Part shown: piece by piece, positions 51,879-62,077 of the stretch
Layout: every line of letters begins with the position of its first letter
Position numbering within the stretch: the first letter of the stretch is position 1
NCBI RefSeq assembly: GCF_011516825.1
Contig: NZ_WOTA01000006.1
Span: 1-64,000 of the forward strand
Direction of reading: 5' to 3'
DNA: 64,000 bases
From: Acetobacter oeni
GTDB lineage: Bacteria > Pseudomonadota > Alphaproteobacteria > Acetobacterales > Acetobacteraceae
Translations under genes and position numbers: made by a program
Notes under the pieces: generated by a model
Told to the model about the DNA's origin: nothing
The model's input: only the letters and a program-made list of their open reading frames with translations
Databases searched by the model: none

Positions 51879-52676
51879 TCAGGGGCAGACGGAACTGTAT
51901 TTCGAATACTTTTCTGTTTTCCGGTACATAACTTCTTCTTCTTCCGGGACGGTTGTTTCTTCGTACCAGGGTGTGTGTTCGCTCTCATAGTTTCCCGAGA
52001 CGCGCACGGCATGGAAAAACTGGTCCGGGTTAAAATATTTCTTGTTGTATAAAGCGAATGTTGTATCGATCGGGGCGTCGAAGACCTCGCTTCCGTCCGG
52101 GAGATGTCCCAGTTTGTAACGCCAGAACTGGCTTTCCCATTCCCATATATGGGTTGGGCCGGCCTGGCTGGCATTGATGAATCTGGCCTGCTTCATTTTA
52201 TCTTTGTTCTTCAGGGATAACGCGAAACCGACTTTCCCGATTCTGAAATGGTCGCTCAGCAGGGTCAGTTGTGTCATGAAATCTGCTGGCAGACTTTTGC
52301 TGAACTCGATATCCGGGTCTGTAAGACAGAACAGTTCCGGGAGCATGTCATAAATTTCTTTTGTTTTGACAATATATTTTGGGCCTTTGTTCTCTCCGAG
52401 CCGGATGACGTGGCAGATTTTGTCGTGTTGTAATTTGTTCAGGACAAGAATCATTTTATCGTAATCGGAGGCGTTATCGACGACGATTATTTTTCTGAAT
52501 CTGTGCCGGATGAGCTGTCTGATCATCTTCACGACGTAAGTCGGGTTGTTGAAAGACGGGATATAAACGGGGATATGGCAGTAATAGAGGCTTTTTACGT
52601 AATCGTAAGATGATTTATGGAAATCATAAAAGCTGTCAGACAGGAAAGAGTCAACATCGTTGCCCGATGGTTCCAT
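51879..52676 (-). CDS. Family 2-like glycosyltransferase, probably acquired
   Basis: A 265-residue protein with HIPVYIPSFNNPTYVVKMIR, IIVVDNASDYDKM and FCLTDPDIEFSKSLP; D-N-A-S and D-P-D are the nucleotide and metal motifs of a GT-A enzyme. No membrane helix or signal peptide is visible. Codons are strikingly AT-rich (AAA, ATT, TAT) against its neighbours, and a dispersed repeat and a strong inverted repeat flank it. I infer recent transfer. A dyad (52684-52715) sits immediately upstream of the start. Donor and acceptor are unknown. Confidence 0.75.
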   Translation of the reverse strand: MEPSGNDVDSFLSDSFYDFHKSSYDYVKSLYYCHIPVYIPSFNNPTYVVKMIRQLIRHRFRKIIVVDNASDYDKMILVLNKLQHDKICHVIRLGENKGPKYIVKTKEIYDMLPELFCLTDPDIEFSKSLPADFMTQLTLLSDHFRIGKVGFALSLKNKDKMKQARFINASQAGPTHIWEWESQFWRYKLGHLPDGSEVFDAPIDTTFALYNKKYFNPDQFFHAVRVSGNYESEHTPWYEETTVPEEEEVMYRKTEKYSKYSSVCP

Positions 52677-52814: not shown

Positions 52815-54296
52815 TTATGCTTCCGCGTCGGCGGTCTCTTTTGCCACCAGTCCGCGGACGGCCGGATATAAGGCTCTGTAGCGCGGCAGGATCGCTGCAT
52901 AAGCGTCCCGCAACACCGGGTCCGGCAGGACTGTTTCGATCCGTTCCGGCGCGCCGCAGACTGTGGCGGGGGCTTCGCCCGTTACGGCCATTCGTGCCAG
53001 CCGCGCGGCTCCGAACGAGCCGCCGCGCTCACCATGTTTCAGGCGATGCAGCGGTAAGTCCAGCACGGACGACAGGATTCGGACCCAGTGCGGGCTTCGT
53101 GAGCCGCCGCCGATCACATCTGCTTCCGTGAGGGCTGAGCCGGATTCCCGCAGGCCGTCCAGCGCGTCCCGGAACGAAAACGCCACGCCTTCCAGGACGG
53201 CCTGCGTGAGGGCTGCTCGTGTCGTATCCTGCGATAATCCGAGAAAGCCGCCCCGGATTTCCGGATCGTTATACGGTGTTCGCTCTCCGGACAGGTAGGG
53301 CAGAAAGATGGCTTCCGACGGGTGTTCGATCCGTTCGGGCAACTCTGCCAGCAGGGCCGTTTCCTCCATTCCCGTGACCCGCGCCCACCAGGCGAGCGAC
53401 GCGGCGGCTGACAGTGTGACGCCCATCTGGTGCCAGGTGGCGGGGATGGCGTGGCAAAACGCATGGATGGCGGAGCGTGTGCCGGTTCGCAGGCGGTCGG
53501 TTGTCACCCACAGGACGCCGGAGGTTCCGAGTGACAGAAACGCGGAGCCGGGGATGATTGCGCCGATTCCGACGGCGCCGGCGGCGTTGTCTCCTGCGCT
53601 TCCGGCCAGCACGGGCGGGGTTTTCCATCCCCATTCCGACGCCAGGGCGGGTGTTACATGCCCTGCCGGGTCCGTTCCCTCACACAGGGTCGGCATGGTG
53701 GCTTCTGTCAGGTCGCACGCGGCCAGCGCTTCGTCCGACCAGCGTCGGGCTCCGACATCCAGCCATAGCGTGCCGGAGGCGTCGGACATATCTTCGATCA
53801 TGTCGCCTGTCAGCCGGTAGCGGACCCAGGCTTTCGGCAGCAGGACGTGGCGCGTGGCGGCGAAGATCTCCGGCTCGTGGCGGGCCACCCAGAGGAGTTT
53901 CGGCGCGGTAAATCCGGGCATGGCGATATTCGCGCAGACTTCGCGGCTGCGTGGAAACCGGCGTTCGATTTCCGCGCATTCCGCGCCGGCGCGCTGGTCG
54001 TTCCACAGGATGCAGGGACGCAGAACCTGGCCGTCTTCATCCAGGAGGACGGCGCCGTGCTGCTGGCCGGACAGGCCGATGCCCCGGACTTTTGCGAATG
54101 CGTCCGGCTCTGCTGTCCGCAGCGCGGCGAAACAGCGGAGCACGGCCTGCCACCAGTCCTCCGGGTTCTGTTCGCTCCAGCCGGGGTGCGGGCGGCTGAC
54201 GGTCAGCCCTTCGGTGCGGGCTGTCACCACTGTCTGTGTCTTGTCGACAAGGACAGCCTTGACGCCGGAAGTTCCCAGATCGATCCCGATATACAT
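52815..54296 (-). CDS. xylB: Xylulokinase
   Basis: A 493-residue FGGY carbohydrate kinase. The N-terminus MYIGIDLGTSGVKAVLVD is the phosphate-1 motif; LSGQQHGAVLLDEDG and CILWNDQRAGAECAEIE are the xylulose-binding segments typical of XylB; ISDASG-like EDMSDASGTLW and GGGSRSPHWVRILSSVLD mark the C-terminal ATPase lobe. It phosphorylates D-xylulose for the pentose phosphate pathway. Length matches E. coli XylB (484). The start is ATG at 54296, one codon after an in-frame GTG. It stands without xylA or transport genes, so it may serve arabitol or xylitol use via a dehydrogenase elsewhere. Confidence 0.9.
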   Translation of the reverse strand: MYIGIDLGTSGVKAVLVDKTQTVVTARTEGLTVSRPHPGWSEQNPEDWWQAVLRCFAALRTAEPDAFAKVRGIGLSGQQHGAVLLDEDGQVLRPCILWNDQRAGAECAEIERRFPRSREVCANIAMPGFTAPKLLWVARHEPEIFAATRHVLLPKAWVRYRLTGDMIEDMSDASGTLWLDVGARRWSDEALAACDLTEATMPTLCEGTDPAGHVTPALASEWGWKTPPVLAGSAGDNAAGAVGIGAIIPGSAFLSLGTSGVLWVTTDRLRTGTRSAIHAFCHAIPATWHQMGVTLSAAASLAWWARVTGMEETALLAELPERIEHPSEAIFLPYLSGERTPYNDPEIRGGFLGLSQDTTRAALTQAVLEGVAFSFRDALDGLRESGSALTEADVIGGGSRSPHWVRILSSVLDLPLHRLKHGERGGSFGAARLARMAVTGEAPATVCGAPERIETVLPDPVLRDAYAAILPRYRALYPAVRGLVAKETADAEA

Positions 54297-54536
54297 CACG
54301 CGTTGTTCCGCCCGCAGTTTGTCCTGGATACTGAACCACGTTTTCGTCTGTTTAGCACCGTGCGCCCGGAAGCCGGCGAGACTGTGACACGGGGTGTGCG
54401 GGGAGTGGTGATCTTTTTCCGGTACGGGAAATCATAAATAAGACAGGCCGGGCGAATGTCAGCCCTGTCTGGACAGAAAGATGTGTCAATGCTGTAACAG
54501 AGAGCGAGACGCGCAAAGCAATACCGGAAGATTACA

Positions 54537-57500
54537 ATGAATTCAGGGCCGCCGGACACATTGAATACTCCGGATACCACTCCCGAATATCAGCGGGATG
54601 CGCCGGAAGGGCTGCGTCTCAGCTTTTCCTTGCAGGACAGTATCAATGCGTCGCTCTGGGAAAACAGTGTTCCTGTTCTTCAGGAACTTTCACTTGAAAA
54701 TCACACGGAGCAGAATTTTCCGCGTCTTGATGTCACCATTGCCTCCGAGCCGCCTCTGATCCGTCCGCGCACATGGCATCTTCAGGATGTTGGCGCGGGA
54801 AAATTCTGTGCGATTGGTGGTCTGGAGCTGACGCTCGACGGGGCTGCGCTTCTGAAGCAGACGGAGGCCTCCCGGGCTGAAGTGACTTTTACCGTTATCG
54901 CGCCGTCGGAGGCGGACACGGAGGGCACGCCTGAGCCGCTTCTTCGTGACACCACTGTTGTCCGTGTTCTGGCCCGCAACGAATGGGGTGGGCTCTCCGG
55001 TATTCCGGATATTCTCGCCGCTTTCGTTCTTCCCAACGATCCGGCTGTCGCCCGTATTCTTCGTGGTGCCTCCACTGTTCTGAAGGAGGCCGAAAAGCCG
55101 CATTCGCTGGAGGGGTATCAGGGCAGTAAAGCGCGTGTCTGGGAGCAGGTTCAGGCCATCTGGCATGCTGTCTGCGCGCTCGACATTACATATGTGAATC
55201 CGCCGGCTTCTTTTATCGAAAGTGGCCAGCGCATCCGACTTCCCACGCAGATCATGGAGGAAAAACTCGGGACCTGTCTGGATACCGCGCTTCTTTTCGC
55301 CTCCTGCCTGGAAGCGGCGGGGCTTCATCCGGTTATCGTGCTGACGAAAGGTCATGCGTTCACCGGTGTCTGGCTGGCTGATACCGATGCCGGTGCTTCT
55401 GTCATGCAGGATCTGCCTGCCCTGCGAAACCGTCTGAAGCTTGACGATCTGAAAGTGTTCGAGACCACGCTTGTCACCCTGGCGCGTAAACCTGCTTTCA
55501 CGGTGGCCTGTGAAAAAGGCGAGCTCAATCTGCGTAATGCAGGCGAGGACGAGGATAATACGTTCCGGGAAGTCATCGACATTCATCGCGCCCGGCTGCG
55601 AAAAATTCATCCTCTTTCTTCTCAGGCAGCGCCTTCGGCGACGACGGATGCGGAGGCCGATGAAGAGGGCGCGCAGCTTCCTGTTTTCGACGCGGCGCCG
55701 GCTCTGCGTGAAGATGCGCACGAGCAGGCGGAGGATCTGTCTGGTGCGCCTGATGACCGTATCCGGCGCTGGTGCAACCGGCTGCTGGATATGTCGAGCC
55801 GGAACCGGCTGCTCAATCTGCCGAAATCAGAGAAGCAGATTATTGAAATCGACTGTCCCGATGCGGAGGAACTGGAAAATATTCTTGCCGGAATGCGGGC
55901 GGGTGGCAAGGTAAAGCCTCTTCGTCTCTGTGCCTGGCCTGACATGATGAAGAACGGTGATCCGCGTAATGCGGCTCTGCACCACGAGCGTCATCATGAT
56001 GAAGCGGCGCTGACTTATGCGAAAGGGTCTCTGCAACGCGGCGAACTTCTGATCGATCGTACTGAGCCGGTGGTTCAGACGGCGCTCACTGAAATCTATC
56101 GTCGTGCTCAGGCTGCTGAGCAGGAAGGGGGCTCCAACATTCTCTTTCTGACTGTTGGCGCTCTTGCCTGGACGAAGAAAGATGGTGACAGGCCGTGGCT
56201 GGCGCCGTTGATTCTTGTTCCGGTTGTACTGGAACGTCCGAGCGTGAAATCCGGGTTTACGCTCCGTGCTCATGGCGATGACAGTCGGGTCAACATCACC
56301 CTGCTGGAAATGCTTCGGACGGAGTATGCCCTGCGTATTCCCGAACTTGAGGGTGACAGTCTGCCGGAGGACGAATCCGGTCTCGATGTCGGGAAAATTA
56401 TTGAAATCTTCCGGTTGCGTCTGAGAAAAGTTCCCGGGTGGGAGGTGCGGGATCATGTTACGCTGACCACGCTCTCTTTCGCTAAATTCCTGATGTGGAA
56501 GGATCTCACGGAGCGTCAGGACAGTCTGCGCTGCAATGATGTCGCGCGTCGGCTTCTGGACGGGGTGACTTCGGATGCCGGTGATCTGTCCGGCGGGACT
56601 TTCACGGAGACCGATGGCGGGCTTGACGACACGCTGGCAAAAGCCGGGCTGATCTGCCCCATGGAGGCTGATTCTTCCCAGCTTAAAGCGGTTGCCCGTG
56701 CGGCGGCCGGTGAAAACTTTGTTCTCATCGGGCCGCCCGGAACCGGGAAAAGTCAGACGATTACGAACATTATTGCCAATACGCTGGCGCAGGGTCGCAC
56801 GGTTCTTTTTGTCGCTGAAAAACGGGCGGCTCTGGAAGTTGTCCGCAATCGTCTCAGGCAGATCGATCTGTCTGAATTCTGTCTTGATCTGTTTTCGCCC
56901 AAAGCCAGCAAAATGGAGGTTCTGGAACAGCTCGGCAGTGCCCGGGATGTTGCTGATCGTTTCGATGAGTCTTTCTGGACTTACAGCCACACCCAGATCG
57001 GCCAGCTTCGTGGTGAGCTTAATGCGTATGTCCATGAGCTTCACAAACGCTGGCGCAACGGGTGGACTCCTTATCGCGGCATTGGCGTCTCCCTGCGGGC
57101 TTCGGATGCCCGGCTTATGGATCTGTCTTTTTCATGGTCCGGGCCTGATGCTCATAGTGAAGATGATTACCGGCAGCTTGAGGCGGCTGCTGAAGACCTT
57201 GCCGATGTGCATAAACGCATCGGGGACGTGGCGGCTTCTCCCGCGCTTGCCGGTCTTGCCCGCACCGGGTGGGGGCCGCAATGGGAGCAGGATTTTCTGG
57301 GTGCCGTCCGGACTCTGCGGGCTGGTCTCGAACGTCTTGTGCCTGTGGCGCGGGATACGCGAAAACTTCTTGGCCTCGACACCGCCTGTTTCTCGCTGTC
57401 AGCGCTTCTTCGGACGAACGATCTCTGTAGCCAGATGCTGAATCATGAAGCATCGGCATGGGCTTTTTCGGAAAAAGCGCCTGAAATCCGCGATGTTATT

Positions 57501-60500
57501 CTGGCTGAGCAGCCTTACGTTACCCGTCATCGTAGTCTGACGGGCGAACTGGAGGCCGGCTGGAAGCCGGAAGTGACCACGCTGCCGCTGGAAGAGCTGC
57601 TGAAAACATGGCGCGACGCTAAGGAAAAATCCGTCTTTCAGTTTCTTGCCCGTTCGAAGGCTCAGAAATCCGTGCGGGGCCAGCTTGCTTCTCATGTCAC
57701 GGGTGAGATTCCGGAAGAGTGCGAAGCCGAGCTGGAACGTCTTGTCGAACTTCAGGCGATTGAAAAACGTCTGGGGGACGCGCCTCATGCCGCGACGGTT
57801 GGCGCCGGGCTCTGGCGTGGTCTGGACACTGATTTTGACCGGATCGATGCCTGTCAGACATGGGGTAAAATCACGCGCGCGACACTGGCCGCCTGCGCTC
57901 CGGATGTCAGCGCGCTTCTCACTGCCCGCACGCAGCTGACAACGCTGTTGCGGGACGGGCAGGATCTTCTTCAGAGCGGCGGGGCGGCCTGCGCCACGTT
58001 TGGGAAATTCAGTTCTGAACTGCAAACGGTCACAGACGCGCTCGATGCGCTCAGCGGGCTGAGTGGCGCCGATGCGGTCGGGCTTGTCGATGCCGGGGCG
58101 TCTGACTGGCCTGCTCTTCTTATTGCCAGGCTGGACAGCTGGACCAGTGCGGCGCGTGATCTCCGCGACTGGTGCAACTGGAAACTGACCTGTCAGAAAG
58201 CGGTGCGTCTCGGTCTTGCTCCTCTTGTGGAGGCTATTGAGAAGGGGCTGCTTCCGCCGGAACGGACTGTTGAAATCTTCAGGGCGAATTATGCCCGCTG
58301 GTGGATTGCCGGGGCTGTTGAGCAGTCTCCTCTTCTGCGCGGCTTCATTGCGGCGACTCATGAGAAAAGTATCGAGCGGTTCAGGGAGCTTGACAGGCAG
58401 CTGATGGCGATGGCCTCGCGCATGACCCGTGCGCGGCTTGCCGGGCAGATCCCCGATGAACAGGCGCGCCAGGCTGACCCGGAATACAAGGTGCTGACCC
58501 GTGAACTTGCCAAGAAGGCACGGCATCTTCCTGTTCGTCAGCTGGCGGAAAAAATGCCTGGCGCTCTTCGCAGTCTGACCCCCTGTCTGATGATGAGCCC
58601 GCTCTCCGTCGCGCAATATCTGCCGCATGACGCGGCGCCTTTCGATCTGGTCATCTTCGACGAGGCCTCGCAGATTCCGACATGGGATGCCATTGGCGTC
58701 ATCGGTCGGGGGAGGCAGGTCATTGTGGTTGGCGATCCGAAGCAGCTGCCGCCGACAAACTTTTTCGGCAACACGGCGGATGATGAAAGTGACGATCCGG
58801 AAAGCGTCGATCTGGAATCTATTCTCGATGAATGTCTTGGCGCCGGTATTCCGCCTGTCTGGCTGACCTGGCATTATCGCAGCCGTCACGAAAGCCTGAT
58901 CGCTTTTTCGAATCATGCTTATTATCACGGGCAGCTTGTTACATTTCCGTCTCCGGCCACGAAAGACAACGCCGTTTCATTCCGCTTTGTGCCGGATGGC
59001 GTTTATATGCGCGGCAGCCAGCGCACCAACCCGGTTGAAGCCCATGCCGTTGTTGCCGAGGCGCTTCGTCTGCTCCGGGACGGCAGCAACCGCACGCTGG
59101 GGATTGTCACGTTCAACAGCCAGCAGCAGGCTCTTATCATGGACCTGCTGGAAAAGGCCCGGGGCGATCATCCGGATATCGAACGCTTTTTCGGTGAAGA
59201 GGCCGCCGAGCCTGTTCTGATCCGCAATCTTGAAAATGTGCAGGGGGAGGAACGCGATGTCATGCTGTTCTCTCTCACCTTCGGTCCGGATCAGGCGGGC
59301 CATATCACGCTCAATTTTGGTGCGCTCAACCGGGATGGCGGAGAACGTCGCCTGAATGTGGCCATTACCCGCGCCCGCGAAAAACTTGTCGTTTTTGGCT
59401 CTCTGCGCCCTGAGCAGATCGACCTCAACCGGACCAGTGCGCGTGGTGTGCATGATCTTCGCGGCTTTCTGACCTTCGCCGGACACGGGGCCTCTGCCCT
59501 GGTCGGTCTGCCCAAAGGGTCCGTCGGCGATTTCGACAGTATTTTTGAGGAAGAAGTCGCTGCTCTTCTGCGGCAGAAAGGCTGGCAGGTTGTCCCGCAG
59601 GTGGGCGTTTCTGCTTTCCGCATTGATCTTGGTGTTGTCGATCCTGAAAGTCCGGCCACTTTTCTGGCCGGTGTCGAATGTGATGGCGCGACGTATCATC
59701 GCAGCGCCACGGCCCGCGACCGGGATCGTCTGCGGCAGGGGGTGCTGGAAAAGCTCGGCTGGACCATTCTCCGCATCTGGTCAACGGACTGGTGGACCAA
59801 CGCGCCGCGTGAATGCGATCGTATCGATATTGCTCTGCGCGCCACGCTGGAAATCAGACAGAAGCAGCGCGCGGAGCAGGCTGAAAAAGATCGTCTGGCG
59901 GCGGAGGCTGCTGTTGCTGCCGTGCCTGTGTCCGCCCGGCCGGAGGCTCCCCCGACCGGGGCGGATGTGTCGTTGCCGGAGGCCGGGGCGGTTCCGGAAC
60001 CGCCGGTTCAAACGCCGCCGGAGCCGCTTTTCGCAAAGGCGCCGGTTCGGGACGATGTTGCGTCTTCTCCGGCTCTCCAGGCCGATCACGATCGCTTTTT
60101 CGATGAGGATTACGCGCCTGTGCTGGCGGACCTGATCGCCCGGCATATCGAACAGAACGGGCCGGTCCGGGAGGATCTTCTGGTCAGGTATGTCTCGCGG
60201 CTTCATGATTTCGGGCGGGCCGGTTCCGACATTCGTGAGCGCATTACAAACGCCATTCCGTCCGGGCTGCGCCGGACTGACGAGGAGCCGGGCATTTTTC
60301 TCTGGCCGGAGTCCGTGTCTCCGGAGAGCGGCATGGTTTTTCCCGCGCCGGCAAAAGGGGAGACGCTCGATCCCGCGACGGTGCCTCTTGCGGTTCTGGC
60401 GGCGCGTGCCCGGAGCCATCTGGAAGCCGGGCTTAATCCGGAAGCTGGTCTTCTTGCTCTGCGGGCCGATTGCGGTCTGTCACGCATGAGCGGCGGCACA

Positions 60501-60569
60501 CGCACGCGTCTGGAACAGGCTGTCAGTCTGGCGGCGGAGAGCCGGTCCGACAGGGAGGACGTTCTCTGA
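54537..60569 (+). CDS. DUF4011/SF1 helicase/nuclease protein with transglutaminase-like N-terminus (Hhe-like defence candidate)
   Basis: A 2010-residue multidomain protein. Residues about 200-350 form a transglutaminase-like domain with C247 (KLGTCLDTALLFA), H273 (KGHAFTGVW) and probable D348 (VIDIHRAR). DUF4011 starts near 406 (RRWCNRLLDMSSRNRLLNL). The SF1 helicase has Walker A 732-739 (GPPGTGKS), Walker B 1375-1378 (DEAS), GDPKQLPP at 1399, and motif VI near 1607 (NVAITRAREK). A PD-(D/E)xK nuclease of the Vsr/MTES_1575 kind follows, with D1697 (FRIDLG) and E1714/D1716 (GVECDG). DUF3320 lies near 1850-1990. The order recalls the single-gene Hhe (DUF4011-helicase-Vsr) antiphage protein. All motifs are intact. 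GGAAG precedes the start. Function here is inferred. Confidence 0.85.
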   Translation: MNSGPPDTLNTPDTTPEYQRDAPEGLRLSFSLQDSINASLWENSVPVLQELSLENHTEQNFPRLDVTIASEPPLIRPRTWHLQDVGAGKFCAIGGLELTLDGAALLKQTEASRAEVTFTVIAPSEADTEGTPEPLLRDTTVVRVLARNEWGGLSGIPDILAAFVLPNDPAVARILRGASTVLKEAEKPHSLEGYQGSKARVWEQVQAIWHAVCALDITYVNPPASFIESGQRIRLPTQIMEEKLGTCLDTALLFASCLEAAGLHPVIVLTKGHAFTGVWLADTDAGASVMQDLPALRNRLKLDDLKVFETTLVTLARKPAFTVACEKGELNLRNAGEDEDNTFREVIDIHRARLRKIHPLSSQAAPSATTDAEADEEGAQLPVFDAAPALREDAHEQAEDLSGAPDDRIRRWCNRLLDMSSRNRLLNLPKSEKQIIEIDCPDAEELENILAGMRAGGKVKPLRLCAWPDMMKNGDPRNAALHHERHHDEAALTYAKGSLQRGELLIDRTEPVVQTALTEIYRRAQAAEQEGGSNILFLTVGALAWTKKDGDRPWLAPLILVPVVLERPSVKSGFTLRAHGDDSRVNITLLEMLRTEYALRIPELEGDSLPEDESGLDVGKIIEIFRLRLRKVPGWEVRDHVTLTTLSFAKFLMWKDLTERQDSLRCNDVARRLLDGVTSDAGDLSGGTFTETDGGLDDTLAKAGLICPMEADSSQLKAVARAAAGENFVLIGPPGTGKSQTITNIIANTLAQGRTVLFVAEKRAALEVVRNRLRQIDLSEFCLDLFSPKASKMEVLEQLGSARDVADRFDESFWTYSHTQIGQLRGELNAYVHELHKRWRNGWTPYRGIGVSLRASDARLMDLSFSWSGPDAHSEDDYRQLEAAAEDLADVHKRIGDVAASPALAGLARTGWGPQWEQDFLGAVRTLRAGLERLVPVARDTRKLLGLDTACFSLSALLRTNDLCSQMLNHEASAWAFSEKAPEIRDVILAEQPYVTRHRSLTGELEAGWKPEVTTLPLEELLKTWRDAKEKSVFQFLARSKAQKSVRGQLASHVTGEIPEECEAELERLVELQAIEKRLGDAPHAATVGAGLWRGLDTDFDRIDACQTWGKITRATLAACAPDVSALLTARTQLTTLLRDGQDLLQSGGAACATFGKFSSELQTVTDALDALSGLSGADAVGLVDAGASDWPALLIARLDSWTSAARDLRDWCNWKLTCQKAVRLGLAPLVEAIEKGLLPPERTVEIFRANYARWWIAGAVEQSPLLRGFIAATHEKSIERFRELDRQLMAMASRMTRARLAGQIPDEQARQADPEYKVLTRELAKKARHLPVRQLAEKMPGALRSLTPCLMMSPLSVAQYLPHDAAPFDLVIFDEASQIPTWDAIGVIGRGRQVIVVGDPKQLPPTNFFGNTADDESDDPESVDLESILDECLGAGIPPVWLTWHYRSRHESLIAFSNHAYYHGQLVTFPSPATKDNAVSFRFVPDGVYMRGSQRTNPVEAHAVVAEALRLLRDGSNRTLGIVTFNSQQQALIMDLLEKARGDHPDIERFFGEEAAEPVLIRNLENVQGEERDVMLFSLTFGPDQAGHITLNFGALNRDGGERRLNVAITRAREKLVVFGSLRPEQIDLNRTSARGVHDLRGFLTFAGHGASALVGLPKGSVGDFDSIFEEEVAALLRQKGWQVVPQVGVSAFRIDLGVVDPESPATFLAGVECDGATYHRSATARDRDRLRQGVLEKLGWTILRIWSTDWWTNAPRECDRIDIALRATLEIRQKQRAEQAEKDRLAAEAAVAAVPVSARPEAPPTGADVSLPEAGAVPEPPVQTPPEPLFAKAPVRDDVASSPALQADHDRFFDEDYAPVLADLIARHIEQNGPVREDLLVRYVSRLHDFGRAGSDIRERITNAIPSGLRRTDEEPGIFLWPESVSPESGMVFPAPAKGETLDPATVPLAVLAARARSHLEAGLNPEAGLLALRADCGLSRMSGGTRTRLEQAVSLAAESRSDREDVL

Positions 60570-60778
60570 CCTTCTGGCGCAATGTGATGCGTCTTCCCTG
60601 TTGCGGCGTGATACGGCGGGCGGGCCACCGGAAAAACACACAGGGGACAAAAAGCGCGCGGCGAACCGCTCTCTGTCCTGTCACAACGCTGGTCCCGCCC
60701 CCCCTGGACAGGGTATAGTCTTTCCAACGGCGGTGTCTTCCGGGGCACTGGCCGCCCAACAACACACCGGTTGGTTCC

Positions 60779-62077
60779 GTGCTTCTCCTGTTCCTGGGCG
60801 TTGTCGCCCTTGTCCTTCTTATTGCCATCAGCATCCTGATTTCTCTCTCCGAAATCTCCTTCGCCGCTGCCAGGGACGTGCGTCTTCGCGCGCGCGCCGA
60901 TACCGGTGACGAGAGGGCCACTGCTTTTCTTGCACTGCGCCGCAACAGCGGCCAGGTGATGACCGTTCTGCAGATTCTGCTGAATGCGGTTGGCATTCTT
61001 GGGGGCATGATCAGTTCGGAAATGCTGGCTCCGCCGATTGCGACGATTCTTGCCGGGTGGGGGCTCGATAAGGCCAGCGCGGAGAGTATTGCTTCCGCCA
61101 CGGGCTTTATTTTCACCACGGGTGTTTTCGTTCTGTTTGCGGATCTTCTGCCCAAGCGCATTGCGATGAACGCGCCGGACCGCATCGCGCTGTCTGTCGG
61201 CTGGTTTCCGGCTGCGGCTTTGCGTGTGCTTTATCCCTTTGTCTGGGTCTTTTCTAAAATCTCCGATGCTCTGCTCAGGGTGCTGAAGATTCCCGCTGCG
61301 TCCGCGGTTGAGCCGGTTACGCCGGAAGATCTCCGGGCCATTCTTGCTGCCGGCACCGCTTCAGGCGTGTTGCTGGAGCAGGAACATCAGATGATCCAGA
61401 ATGTTCTGGGTTTGCAGGATCGTTCGGTCACCTCGGCGATGACGCCGCGTGATGAAATCGTTTATCTCGACATTCAGGAGTCGCCGGAAATTCAGCGCGA
61501 CAAGGTTCGTGTGCGTCCTTATTCGCGGTATCCGCTGTGCAACGGGGGGCTCGACCATGTGATCGGCTCCATTCGTGCGGAGGACGTTCTTGTTGTTGCC
61601 GTGGATTCTCCGACCACGCCGATTTCGAAACTGCGCCGCGACGTGCTCTCTGTTCCCGAGACCCTGAATCTCTGGGACACTCTGGCCCAGTTCGATACGC
61701 ACGGGGCTGGTTTTGCGCTTGTGGTCAGCGAATACGGCATGATCGTGGGGCTCATCACGTTCAAGGATATTATGGGCGCACTGATGGACGGTCTTGCCAA
61801 TCCGTTCGAGGAGCAGGCCATTGTCCGTCGTGACGAGAATTCCTGGCTGATCGACGGGGCGGCTCCGATTGGCGATGTGATTCGTGAGCTTGGCGTGGCT
61901 GATCTGCCTGACAGCGCGTCCTTTGACACTATCGGTGGGTTTGTCATGCATCGTCTTCGTCGCATGGCCCGCAAAGCCGACCGGATCGACGCTGCCGGGT
62001 TCCGTTTTGAAGTGGTTGATGTCGAAGGTTTCCGCATCAACCAGCTTCTTGTGACCCGGCTGGAGCGCAAGGATTAA
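60779..62077 (+). CDS. CorC/HlyC-type CBS membrane protein (YtfL-like)
   Basis: A 432-residue protein. The N-terminal DUF21/CNNM domain has four hydrophobic segments (LLFLGVVALVLLIAISILIS first, with S-L-S-E-I-S-F-A-A-A after it). A CBS pair follows (SAMTPRDEIVYLDIQESPEI and VPETLNLWDTLAQFDTHGAG with MIVGLITFKDIMG), then a C-terminal CorC_HlyC domain (WLIDGAAPIGDVIRELGVAD). Family members influence magnesium, cobalt or other cation transport. The start is GTG at 60779. It lies 210 bases after the DUF4011 helicase gene on the same strand, with no sign of coupling. Confidence 0.88.
   Translation: MLLLFLGVVALVLLIAISILISLSEISFAAARDVRLRARADTGDERATAFLALRRNSGQVMTVLQILLNAVGILGGMISSEMLAPPIATILAGWGLDKASAESIASATGFIFTTGVFVLFADLLPKRIAMNAPDRIALSVGWFPAAALRVLYPFVWVFSKISDALLRVLKIPAASAVEPVTPEDLRAILAAGTASGVLLEQEHQMIQNVLGLQDRSVTSAMTPRDEIVYLDIQESPEIQRDKVRVRPYSRYPLCNGGLDHVIGSIRAEDVLVVAVDSPTTPISKLRRDVLSVPETLNLWDTLAQFDTHGAGFALVVSEYGMIVGLITFKDIMGALMDGLANPFEEQAIVRRDENSWLIDGAAPIGDVIRELGVADLPDSASFDTIGGFVMHRLRRMARKADRIDAAGFRFEVVDVEGFRINQLLVTRLERKD

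What the first reader, a model, noticed from the sequence alone, without database searches (positions are those of the whole stretch)
54537..60569. 2010-residue DUF4011-helicase-nuclease protein: single-gene defence candidate
Seen: intact SF1 helicase motifs, a DUF4011 region, a Vsr/MTES_1575-like PD-(D/E)xK nuclease with D1697, E1714 and D1716, and DUF3320 at the C-terminus. Known: the same domain order was described for Hhe, a single-protein antiphage system. Inference: this gene protects the host from phage. It stands alone between xylB and a CorC-type gene, with no other defence genes near, so it may be a compact island on its own.
Basis: partly seen in the sequence, partly recalled or inferred. 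Interest (0 to 1): 0.75.

Follow-up and report, generated by a model that had tools for sequence, protein, structure and literature searches.

The report
ProA-type single-gene phage-defence candidate
An acetic acid bacterium carries one very large gene for a DNA-motor-plus-DNA-cutter protein of an already named anti-phage family, which moves between species and is often lost, so it is a good but not new defence candidate.

Summary
In detail: window 54537-60569 (+) is one open 2010-residue ORF with DUF4011, intact SF1 helicase motifs, a Vsr-like MTES_1575 nuclease and DUF3320. The listed residues are correct; K738, D1697, E1714 and D1716 are invariant in 52 of 52 distinct aligned sequences.

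The protein passes NCBIfam's 'anti-phage protein ProA' equivalog model (2058 bits, cut-off 1500) and fails the Hhe model (828, cut-off 2000). Its best PADLOC model is PDC-S37, not Hhe. So it is a relative of Hhe, not an Hhe.

Comparative tests fit a mobile accessory gene: intact in 12 of 49 genomes of the genus, broken, partial or at contig ends in 6; in 0 of the 5 other genomes with the xylB-corC pair does it lie there; a single Acetobacter clade is rejected in its tree (p-AU 5e-73). None of 56 other called window ORFs matches a PADLOC defence model at 1e-10.

Phage defence and mechanism remain untested. New member of a known kind.

The parts
54537..60569 (+). proA-type gene, 2010 aa
   Evidence: NF058533 2058 bits, cut-off 1500; PADLOC PDC-S37 1185 bits
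54606..54971 (+). N-terminal beta-sandwich (about residues 24-145)
   Evidence: AlphaFold model, pLDDT blocks mostly 85-96; VIA-align Z up to 9.7 to many unrelated beta-sandwiches, so the fold is common
54984..55610 (+). transglutaminase/PNGase-like domain (about residues 150-358); invariant C247, H273, E309
   Evidence: VIA-align: 1x3w Z 9.0 (rmsd 4.0, 158 aligned), 4xz7 Z 8.9, 9crn Z 8.8; C247, D249, H273 and E309 invariant in 52 of 52 distinct sequences
55779..56315 (+). DUF4011 (residues 415-593)
   Evidence: PF13195, E 4.2e-38
56670..56861 (+). SF1 helicase motifs I and Ia (residues 712-775); K738
   Evidence: PF13086; K738 invariant 52 of 52; motif table
56862..58586 (+). all-helical insert between motifs Ia and II (about residues 776-1350)
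   Evidence: AlphaFold model of residues 770-1350: pLDDT 89, nearly all helix; no Foldseek match at E <= 0.001
58641..59402 (+). helicase motifs II-VI (residues 1369-1622: DEAS, GDPKQLPP, VQGEERDV, NVAITRARE)
   Evidence: PF13087; motif numbering is mine
59544..59828 (+). Vsr-like MTES_1575 PD-(D/E)xK nuclease (residues 1670-1764); D1697, E1714, D1716
   Evidence: PF18741, 119.6 bits, cut-off 38.2; invariant 52 of 52; the one such match found in the genome
60090..60239 (+). DUF3320, winged helix (residues 1852-1901)
   Evidence: PF11784, E 1.6e-8; called wHTH in PMC3710099 (passage); C-terminal part absent in 12 of 52 distinct homologues aligned
54300..60778 (.). variable xylB-corC interval
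   Evidence: 6479 bp here; 3081, 960, 201, 201 and 200 bp in the 5 other genomes with the pair, none with proA there

Best explanation
The gene encodes a ProA-family (PADLOC PDC-S37) single-protein anti-phage effector, gained horizontally at a variable site between xylB and corC. Shown: family membership by curated profile, intact and invariant active-site residues, patchy and horizontally mixed distribution, decay in relatives. Inferred: an Upf1/Dna2-like SF1B motor loads on single-stranded or branched DNA made during phage replication and translocates 5' to 3'. The Vsr-like nuclease, placed by the winged-helix tail where that is present, cuts the DNA. The N-terminal transglutaminase-like domain, DUF4011 and the helical insert recognise a phage cue and hold the enzyme off until then. 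The outcome is phage DNA destruction or abortive infection; I favour the latter weakly, by analogy with Hna.
For: NF058533 passed over residues 37-1969. PDC-S37 is the best PADLOC model. Helicase and nuclease residues invariant in 52 of 52 distinct sequences. phmmer matches to Sen1, SMUBP-2, Upf1 and DNA2. 12 of 49 genus genomes intact, 6 broken, partial or at contig ends. G007/G062: 8 shared flanking ORFs shown at 92-99% identity, gene intact in one and reduced to a remnant of about 270 bp in the other. G061's copy is split by a stretch that holds a DDE transposase. A single Acetobacter clade is rejected, p-AU 5e-73. Acetobacter sp. AN02's copy is 93.5% identical to that of Gluconobacter vitians and 92.5% to one on a conjugative G. 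albidus plasmid, against 75.6% to A. pasteurianus (plasmid typing).
Against: I saw no phage assay for this gene or a close relative. The experimental basis of the NCBI name ProA was not found. No defence-island context. Of 449 plasmid records that match at 1e-5, 448 are under 60% identical and only 58 cover 80% or more, so most may be other helicases; among 50,697 phage records only 2 match. PMC10250203 (passages) reports a DUF4011 gene in every P. aeruginosa isolate, so DUF4011 proteins can be core genes; whether that one is ProA-type was not tested. The mechanism steps are all inference.
Confidence: 0.72

Rival explanations
1. It is a DNA-repair or plasmid/transposon-exclusion nuclease: an Upf1/Dna2-like end-processing enzyme that acts on broken or incoming DNA, with phage only one of several targets.
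For: SF1B kinship to DNA2 and Upf1; nuclease of the Vsr fold class (PMC3710099 passage; that Vsr is a mismatch-repair nuclease is recalled); a homologue on a conjugative plasmid.
Against: 30 of 49 genus genomes have no match, so no housekeeping need; inactivated or deleted repeatedly; the curated family name is anti-phage.
Confidence: 0.17
2. It is a true Hhe system.
For: Second-best PADLOC model is Hhe (584 bits); the Hhe profile aligns with residues 1192-1791 as its best stretch of four.
Against: 828 bits against a curated cut-off of 2000, while the ProA cut-off is passed. All 4 homologues scanned behave likewise (764.7-865.4 bits for Hhe, 2101-2372 for ProA).
Confidence: 0.04
3. It is a resident gene of no defence function that persists by transfer, for example a selfish or addiction-like element.
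For: Frequent decay and transfer between genera.
Against: Invariant catalytic-type residues in three separate domains across 52 distinct sequences, down to about 36% identity, show long selection on function; its immediate neighbours are xylB and corC, with no partner antitoxin gene between.
Confidence: 0.07

Closest known systems
ProA anti-phage protein (NCBIfam NF058533); PADLOC PDC-S37
   Same: Near full-length match over the curated cut-off; same domain order; single gene
   Different: 77-79% identical to its nearest relative found (A. musti); different genomic site
Hhe (NCBIfam NF042953; PADLOC Hhe)
   Same: DUF4011 (in the model's name), helicase-nuclease part aligns with the Hhe profile
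   Different: Fails the Hhe cut-off; best aligned stretch is only residues 1192-1791
MTES_1575-type proteins (PMC3710099, passage)
   Same: Transglutaminase, Vsr-type REase and wHTH (overlapping DUF3320) domains in one protein
   Different: The paper's example is also fused to a HEPN domain; no Pfam HEPN model was among the 25 of 30 matches listed here, and I did not test it further
Hna, Hachiman (helicase-nuclease defences)
   Same: A motor and a nuclease working together; works-like comparison only
   Different: Hna is one protein with SF2 helicase motifs and a PD-(D/E)XK nuclease (PMC13381803, introduction); Hachiman is the two-protein HamAB complex (PMC12278908, abstract start in the listings); no homology claimed

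Membership tests
ProA (NF058533) | Whole-protein score over curated equivalog cut-off (1500 bits) | tested here: met
   2058.2 bits, residues 37-1969 on profile 1-1889 of 1903
ProA (NF058533) | Protects cells against phage | not testable with these tools
   Needs a plaque assay
PADLOC PDC-S37 | Best-scoring PADLOC model, near full length of the profile | tested here: met
   1184.6 bits, residues 407-1999 on profile 8-1533 of 1550; PADLOC's own system thresholds were not shown
Hhe (NF042953) | Score over curated equivalog cut-off (2000 bits) | tested here: not met
   828.4 bits
SF1 (Upf1/Dna2-like) helicase | Motifs I, Ia, II, III, V, VI intact | tested here: met
   motif names recalled
MTES_1575 nuclease (PF18741) | Domain over cut-off with conserved D...ExD residues | tested here: met
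   119.6 bits against 38.2; D1697, E1714, D1716 invariant 52 of 52
Transglutaminase-like superfamily | Papain-like/TG fold | tested here: inconclusive
   Z 8.8-9.0 to PNGase, TGase and TglA over 146-158 residues; Foldseek E about 1e-2 for PNGase; no Pfam transglutaminase model in the 25 of 30 matches listed
Transglutaminase-like superfamily | Conserved Cys, His and acidic residue | tested here: met
   C247, H273 and E309 each invariant in 52 of 52 distinct sequences; that E309 stands for the usual Asp is inference, and geometry was not measured
Defence island or mobile element | Other defence genes, integrase or flanking repeats nearby | tested here: not met
   0 of 56 called window ORFs (100 aa or more) match PADLOC at 1e-10; no integrase among 7 window genes scanned by Pfam; no shared direct 9-mer across the two flanks
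Housekeeping gene | Present in nearly all relatives at the same place | tested here: not met
   12 of 49 intact; 0 of 5 other xylB-corC intervals hold it

The most novel reading that the evidence does not exclude
ProA proteins are three-enzyme defence machines: besides the motor and the nuclease, the N-terminal transglutaminase-like domain is a working thiol enzyme (C247-H273-E309) that cleaves or modifies a protein, either the phage protein sensed or ProA itself, to release the nuclease. A defence switch made of a thiol-enzyme sensor fused to a translocating nuclease would be a new way of triggering immunity.
Probability: 0.15. Interest if true: 0.65.

Novelty: new member of a known kind. Interest (0 to 1): 0.3.

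Why it matters
It adds a well-documented member of a large single-gene anti-phage family in acetic acid bacteria, with natural presence/absence pairs (G007 against G062; the window genome against G063, G015, G011, G069 and G071 at this site) that make phage tests easy. The invariant thiol-type residues in the N-terminal domain give a specific, testable question about how the family is switched on.

Tried and rejected
Hhe membership: rejected on the curated cut-off.

Housekeeping gene at a conserved locus: rejected.

Defence-island context: 0 of 56 window ORFs match PADLOC at 1e-10. These ORFs come from a simple longest-ORF caller of mine (100 aa or more), so short or overlapped genes may be missing and some ORFs are surely not genes. 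Of 122 ORFs flanking 8 homologues (122 of the 158 ORFs of 130 aa or more at 10 loci listed), the matches were mad3 4, mad8 2, mad2 1, ATPase-Toprim 1 and AriA 1. I rescanned 20 of the 122: all 4 mad3, both mad8, the ATPase-Toprim and the AriA matches fall on 4 proteins, and Pfam calls all 4 ABC-transporter ATPases. The mad2 match was not traced.

Insertion signature: no shared direct 9-mer between 54200-54540 and 60541-60800; two inverted 10-mers only. Composition: GC 0.592 lies within the range of eight other window genes, but its GC3 (0.612) is the second lowest of the nine measured; weak either way.

Known folds for the helical insert: no Foldseek match at E <= 0.001; no VIA-align look was made, so this says little. 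HEPN in this protein: one stretch at residue 477 fits an RN...H pattern (pattern recalled); not pursued. PHROGs gave only helicase-region matches (5 families, best 4e-31 to a family of unknown function).

Literature: 10 of 10 searches used. No paper describing ProA, PDC-S37 or this DUF4011/DUF3320 family experimentally turned up in the listings; the library holds no separate bioRxiv set and lacks most subscription papers, so this is not evidence that none exists. I read no paper on Hhe itself; I saw it only named as HheA in a methods passage of PMC12278908. 'Prometheus' occurs as a defence-system name in six papers (one or two passages each); that ProA is its protein is a guess from the name, unverified. 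The one ProA hit in PMC12753305 was the word 'proactive'. PMC13092281 held none of the terms looked for.

Full report
WHAT WAS CLAIMED AND CHECKED. The ORF at 54537-60569 (+) is real: 2010 codons from ATG to stop with no internal stop, and the search found one copy in a 99.99% complete, 4.1-Mb genome. Pfam confirms DUF4011 (415-593), the two halves of an SF1 helicase (712-775, 1428-1622), the MTES_1575 restriction-endonuclease domain (1670-1764) and DUF3320 (1852-1901), all over the curated cut-offs.

CONSERVATION. Two rows are repeats, leaving 52 distinct sequences (45 named, 4 unnamed, 2 plasmid, the window). K738 (Walker A), D1697, E1714, C1715 and D1716 are the same in 52 of 52; the DEAS box and motif VI are conserved too. 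phmmer against solved structures finds Sen1, SMUBP-2, Upf1 and DNA2 (best E 2e-10), the SF1B branch, which by general knowledge moves 5' to 3'. The part after residue 1800, with DUF3320, is missing in 12 of 52, so it is not essential to the family.

WHICH FAMILY. NCBIfam's equivalog for 'anti-phage protein ProA' is passed (2058 bits, cut-off 1500, near full length) and that for Hhe is not (828 bits, cut-off 2000). PADLOC ranks PDC-S37 (1185 bits) far above Hhe (584). Four homologues, including one on a P. aeruginosa plasmid, give the same picture in 4 of 4. I did not find the experimental source of the ProA name in the literature held.

THE N-TERMINUS. An AlphaFold model of residues 24-610 (44 sequences, mean pLDDT 79, higher before model residue 260) shows a beta-sandwich followed by a domain that VIA-align matches to yeast PNGase (1x3w Z 9.0, rmsd 4.0, 158 aligned), a TGase (4xz7 Z 8.9) and S. 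pyogenes TglA (9crn Z 8.8). These Z values are moderate, the rows are a minority of the 50 listed (most fall on the beta-sandwich), and Foldseek has no match at E <= 0.001. But PMC3710099 (passage) independently describes a transglutaminase domain in the founding MTES_1575 protein, and C247, H273 and E309 are each 52 of 52. That E309 takes the place of the usual aspartate is my inference. In one search, at least four alphaproteobacterial relatives (G164, G165, G191, G234) match the ProA profile only from about position 329-351 to the end, in frames of 1602-1639 residues, so the N-terminal module may be absent or too divergent to match; three of these four fall below the ProA cut-off, and one (G165) has an internal stop.

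THE MIDDLE. Residues 770-1350 model as an almost purely helical insert with good confidence (pLDDT 89) and no significant Foldseek match.

THE SITE. XylB at 1e-60 or better occurs in 6 of 49 genomes of the genus and CorC in 46 of 49. In all 6 with XylB, CorC is its neighbour. The gap is 6479 bp in the window genome, 3081 bp in G063, 960 bp in G015, and 200, 201 and 201 bp in G011, G071 and G069 (G071 is only 68% complete). The G063 gap holds other genes (FKBP-type isomerase and a GST protein); none of the five holds proA. So the interval is a variable spot and proA is one of its fillings. In one search no flanking protein of the window copy is shared (1e-30, 45% identity, half the length) with any of 17 other loci of the genus.

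DISTRIBUTION. Searching the protein in all 49 held genomes of the genus (37, 12) gives 19 with a match at E <= 0.001: 12 with one open frame over nearly the whole length (G000, G007, G009, G014, G015, G020, G022, G028, G033, G066, G068, G072); 6 broken, partial or at contig ends (G008, G010, G027, G036, G061, G062); and 1 weak helicase-only match (G067). 30 have none. G007 and G062 share 9 flanking ORFs, the 8 shown at 92-99% identity, yet G062 keeps only a stretch matching residues 1911-1999; G062 is listed with 9% contamination. G061's copy is split by about 3 kb that holds a DDE transposase. Assembly error cannot be excluded for G010 (frame break) and G036 (contig ends). In an even draw of 289 genomes of the class, 11 reach the ProA cut-off, the window's own included; none of the 14 control genomes does.

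TRANSFER. In a tree of 21 rows of my choice from Acetobacteraceae loci the Acetobacter copies need 4 changes of label, and holding them as one clade is rejected (p-AU 5e-73; quick tree, LG+G4, no bootstrap). Acetobacter sp. AN02's copy is 93.5% identical to that of Gluconobacter vitians and 92.5% to that of a conjugative G. albidus plasmid, but 75.6% to that of A. pasteurianus. An old duplication with losses could explain the deep split but hardly these close pairs across genera. The window's own copy is 57.5% identical to the plasmid copy, so it did not come from that plasmid type recently.

NEIGHBOURHOOD. None of 56 other called ORFs of the window matches a PADLOC model at 1e-10. Around 8 homologues, 122 ORFs gave nine model matches, eight of which fall on four ABC-transporter ATPases; the ninth (mad2) was not traced. 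Being alone is thus usual for this family in the acetic acid bacteria sampled rather than special to this window. Mobile-element genes do lie near some relatives: a phage-type integrase near the G020 copy and a resolvase near the G008 remnant.

HOW IT PROBABLY WORKS. Shown: a motor and a nuclease with intact, strictly conserved active-site residues in one chain, in a family that NCBI names anti-phage. Inferred: ATP-driven 5'-3' movement on single-stranded or branched DNA, cutting by the Vsr-like nuclease, control by the N-terminal domain and the helical insert, and release by a phage cue. Hna is a useful comparison for how such a protein can be held inactive and released, there by a phage single-stranded-DNA-binding protein (PMC13381803, abstract and introduction); it works alike at most and is not a relative by any test made here.

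VERDICT. A sound observation, a useful but slightly misfiled interpretation, and a known kind of gene. The transglutaminase-like residues are the part worth a specialist's time.

Noticed in passing
window 51879-52676 (-): Glycosyltransferase family 2-like gene with low GC (0.457) beside xylB (0.663): a possible recent acquisition.
   Followed up: no
L124 (G063), xylB-corC interval: The same interval in the near relative holds an FKBP-type isomerase and a GST-type gene instead of proA, so the site takes up different genes.
   Followed up: partly
L140 (G061) about 7.1-10.0 kb: ProA homologue split by about 3 kb that holds a DDE transposase (PF13701), with an IS4/5-type transposase ORF upstream; a similar ORF flanks the region on both sides in opposite orientation.
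   Followed up: partly
L136 (G020) and L142 (G008): Both share a 92%-identical ORF near ProA or its remnant; in G020 it is a phage-type integrase, and G008 also has a resolvase nearby: a possible carrier.
   Followed up: partly
L082, L084, L088, L091, L093, L094, L095, L096, L100, L107, L114, L115: These 12 homologues, 11 of them from gammaproteobacteria by record title, end soon after the nuclease and lack the DUF3320 tail.
   Followed up: partly
P. aeruginosa cDHS1 (PMC10250203): A large DUF4011 gene is reported there as a core right flank of a defence hotspot in every isolate; whether it is ProA-type was not tested (passages).
   Followed up: no
phage record MT836269.1, 5631-11270: An unannotated 11-kb faecal 'Bacteriophage sp.' record holds a homologue covering 82% of the protein at 33% identity; it may be a bacterial or satellite fragment.
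   Followed up: no
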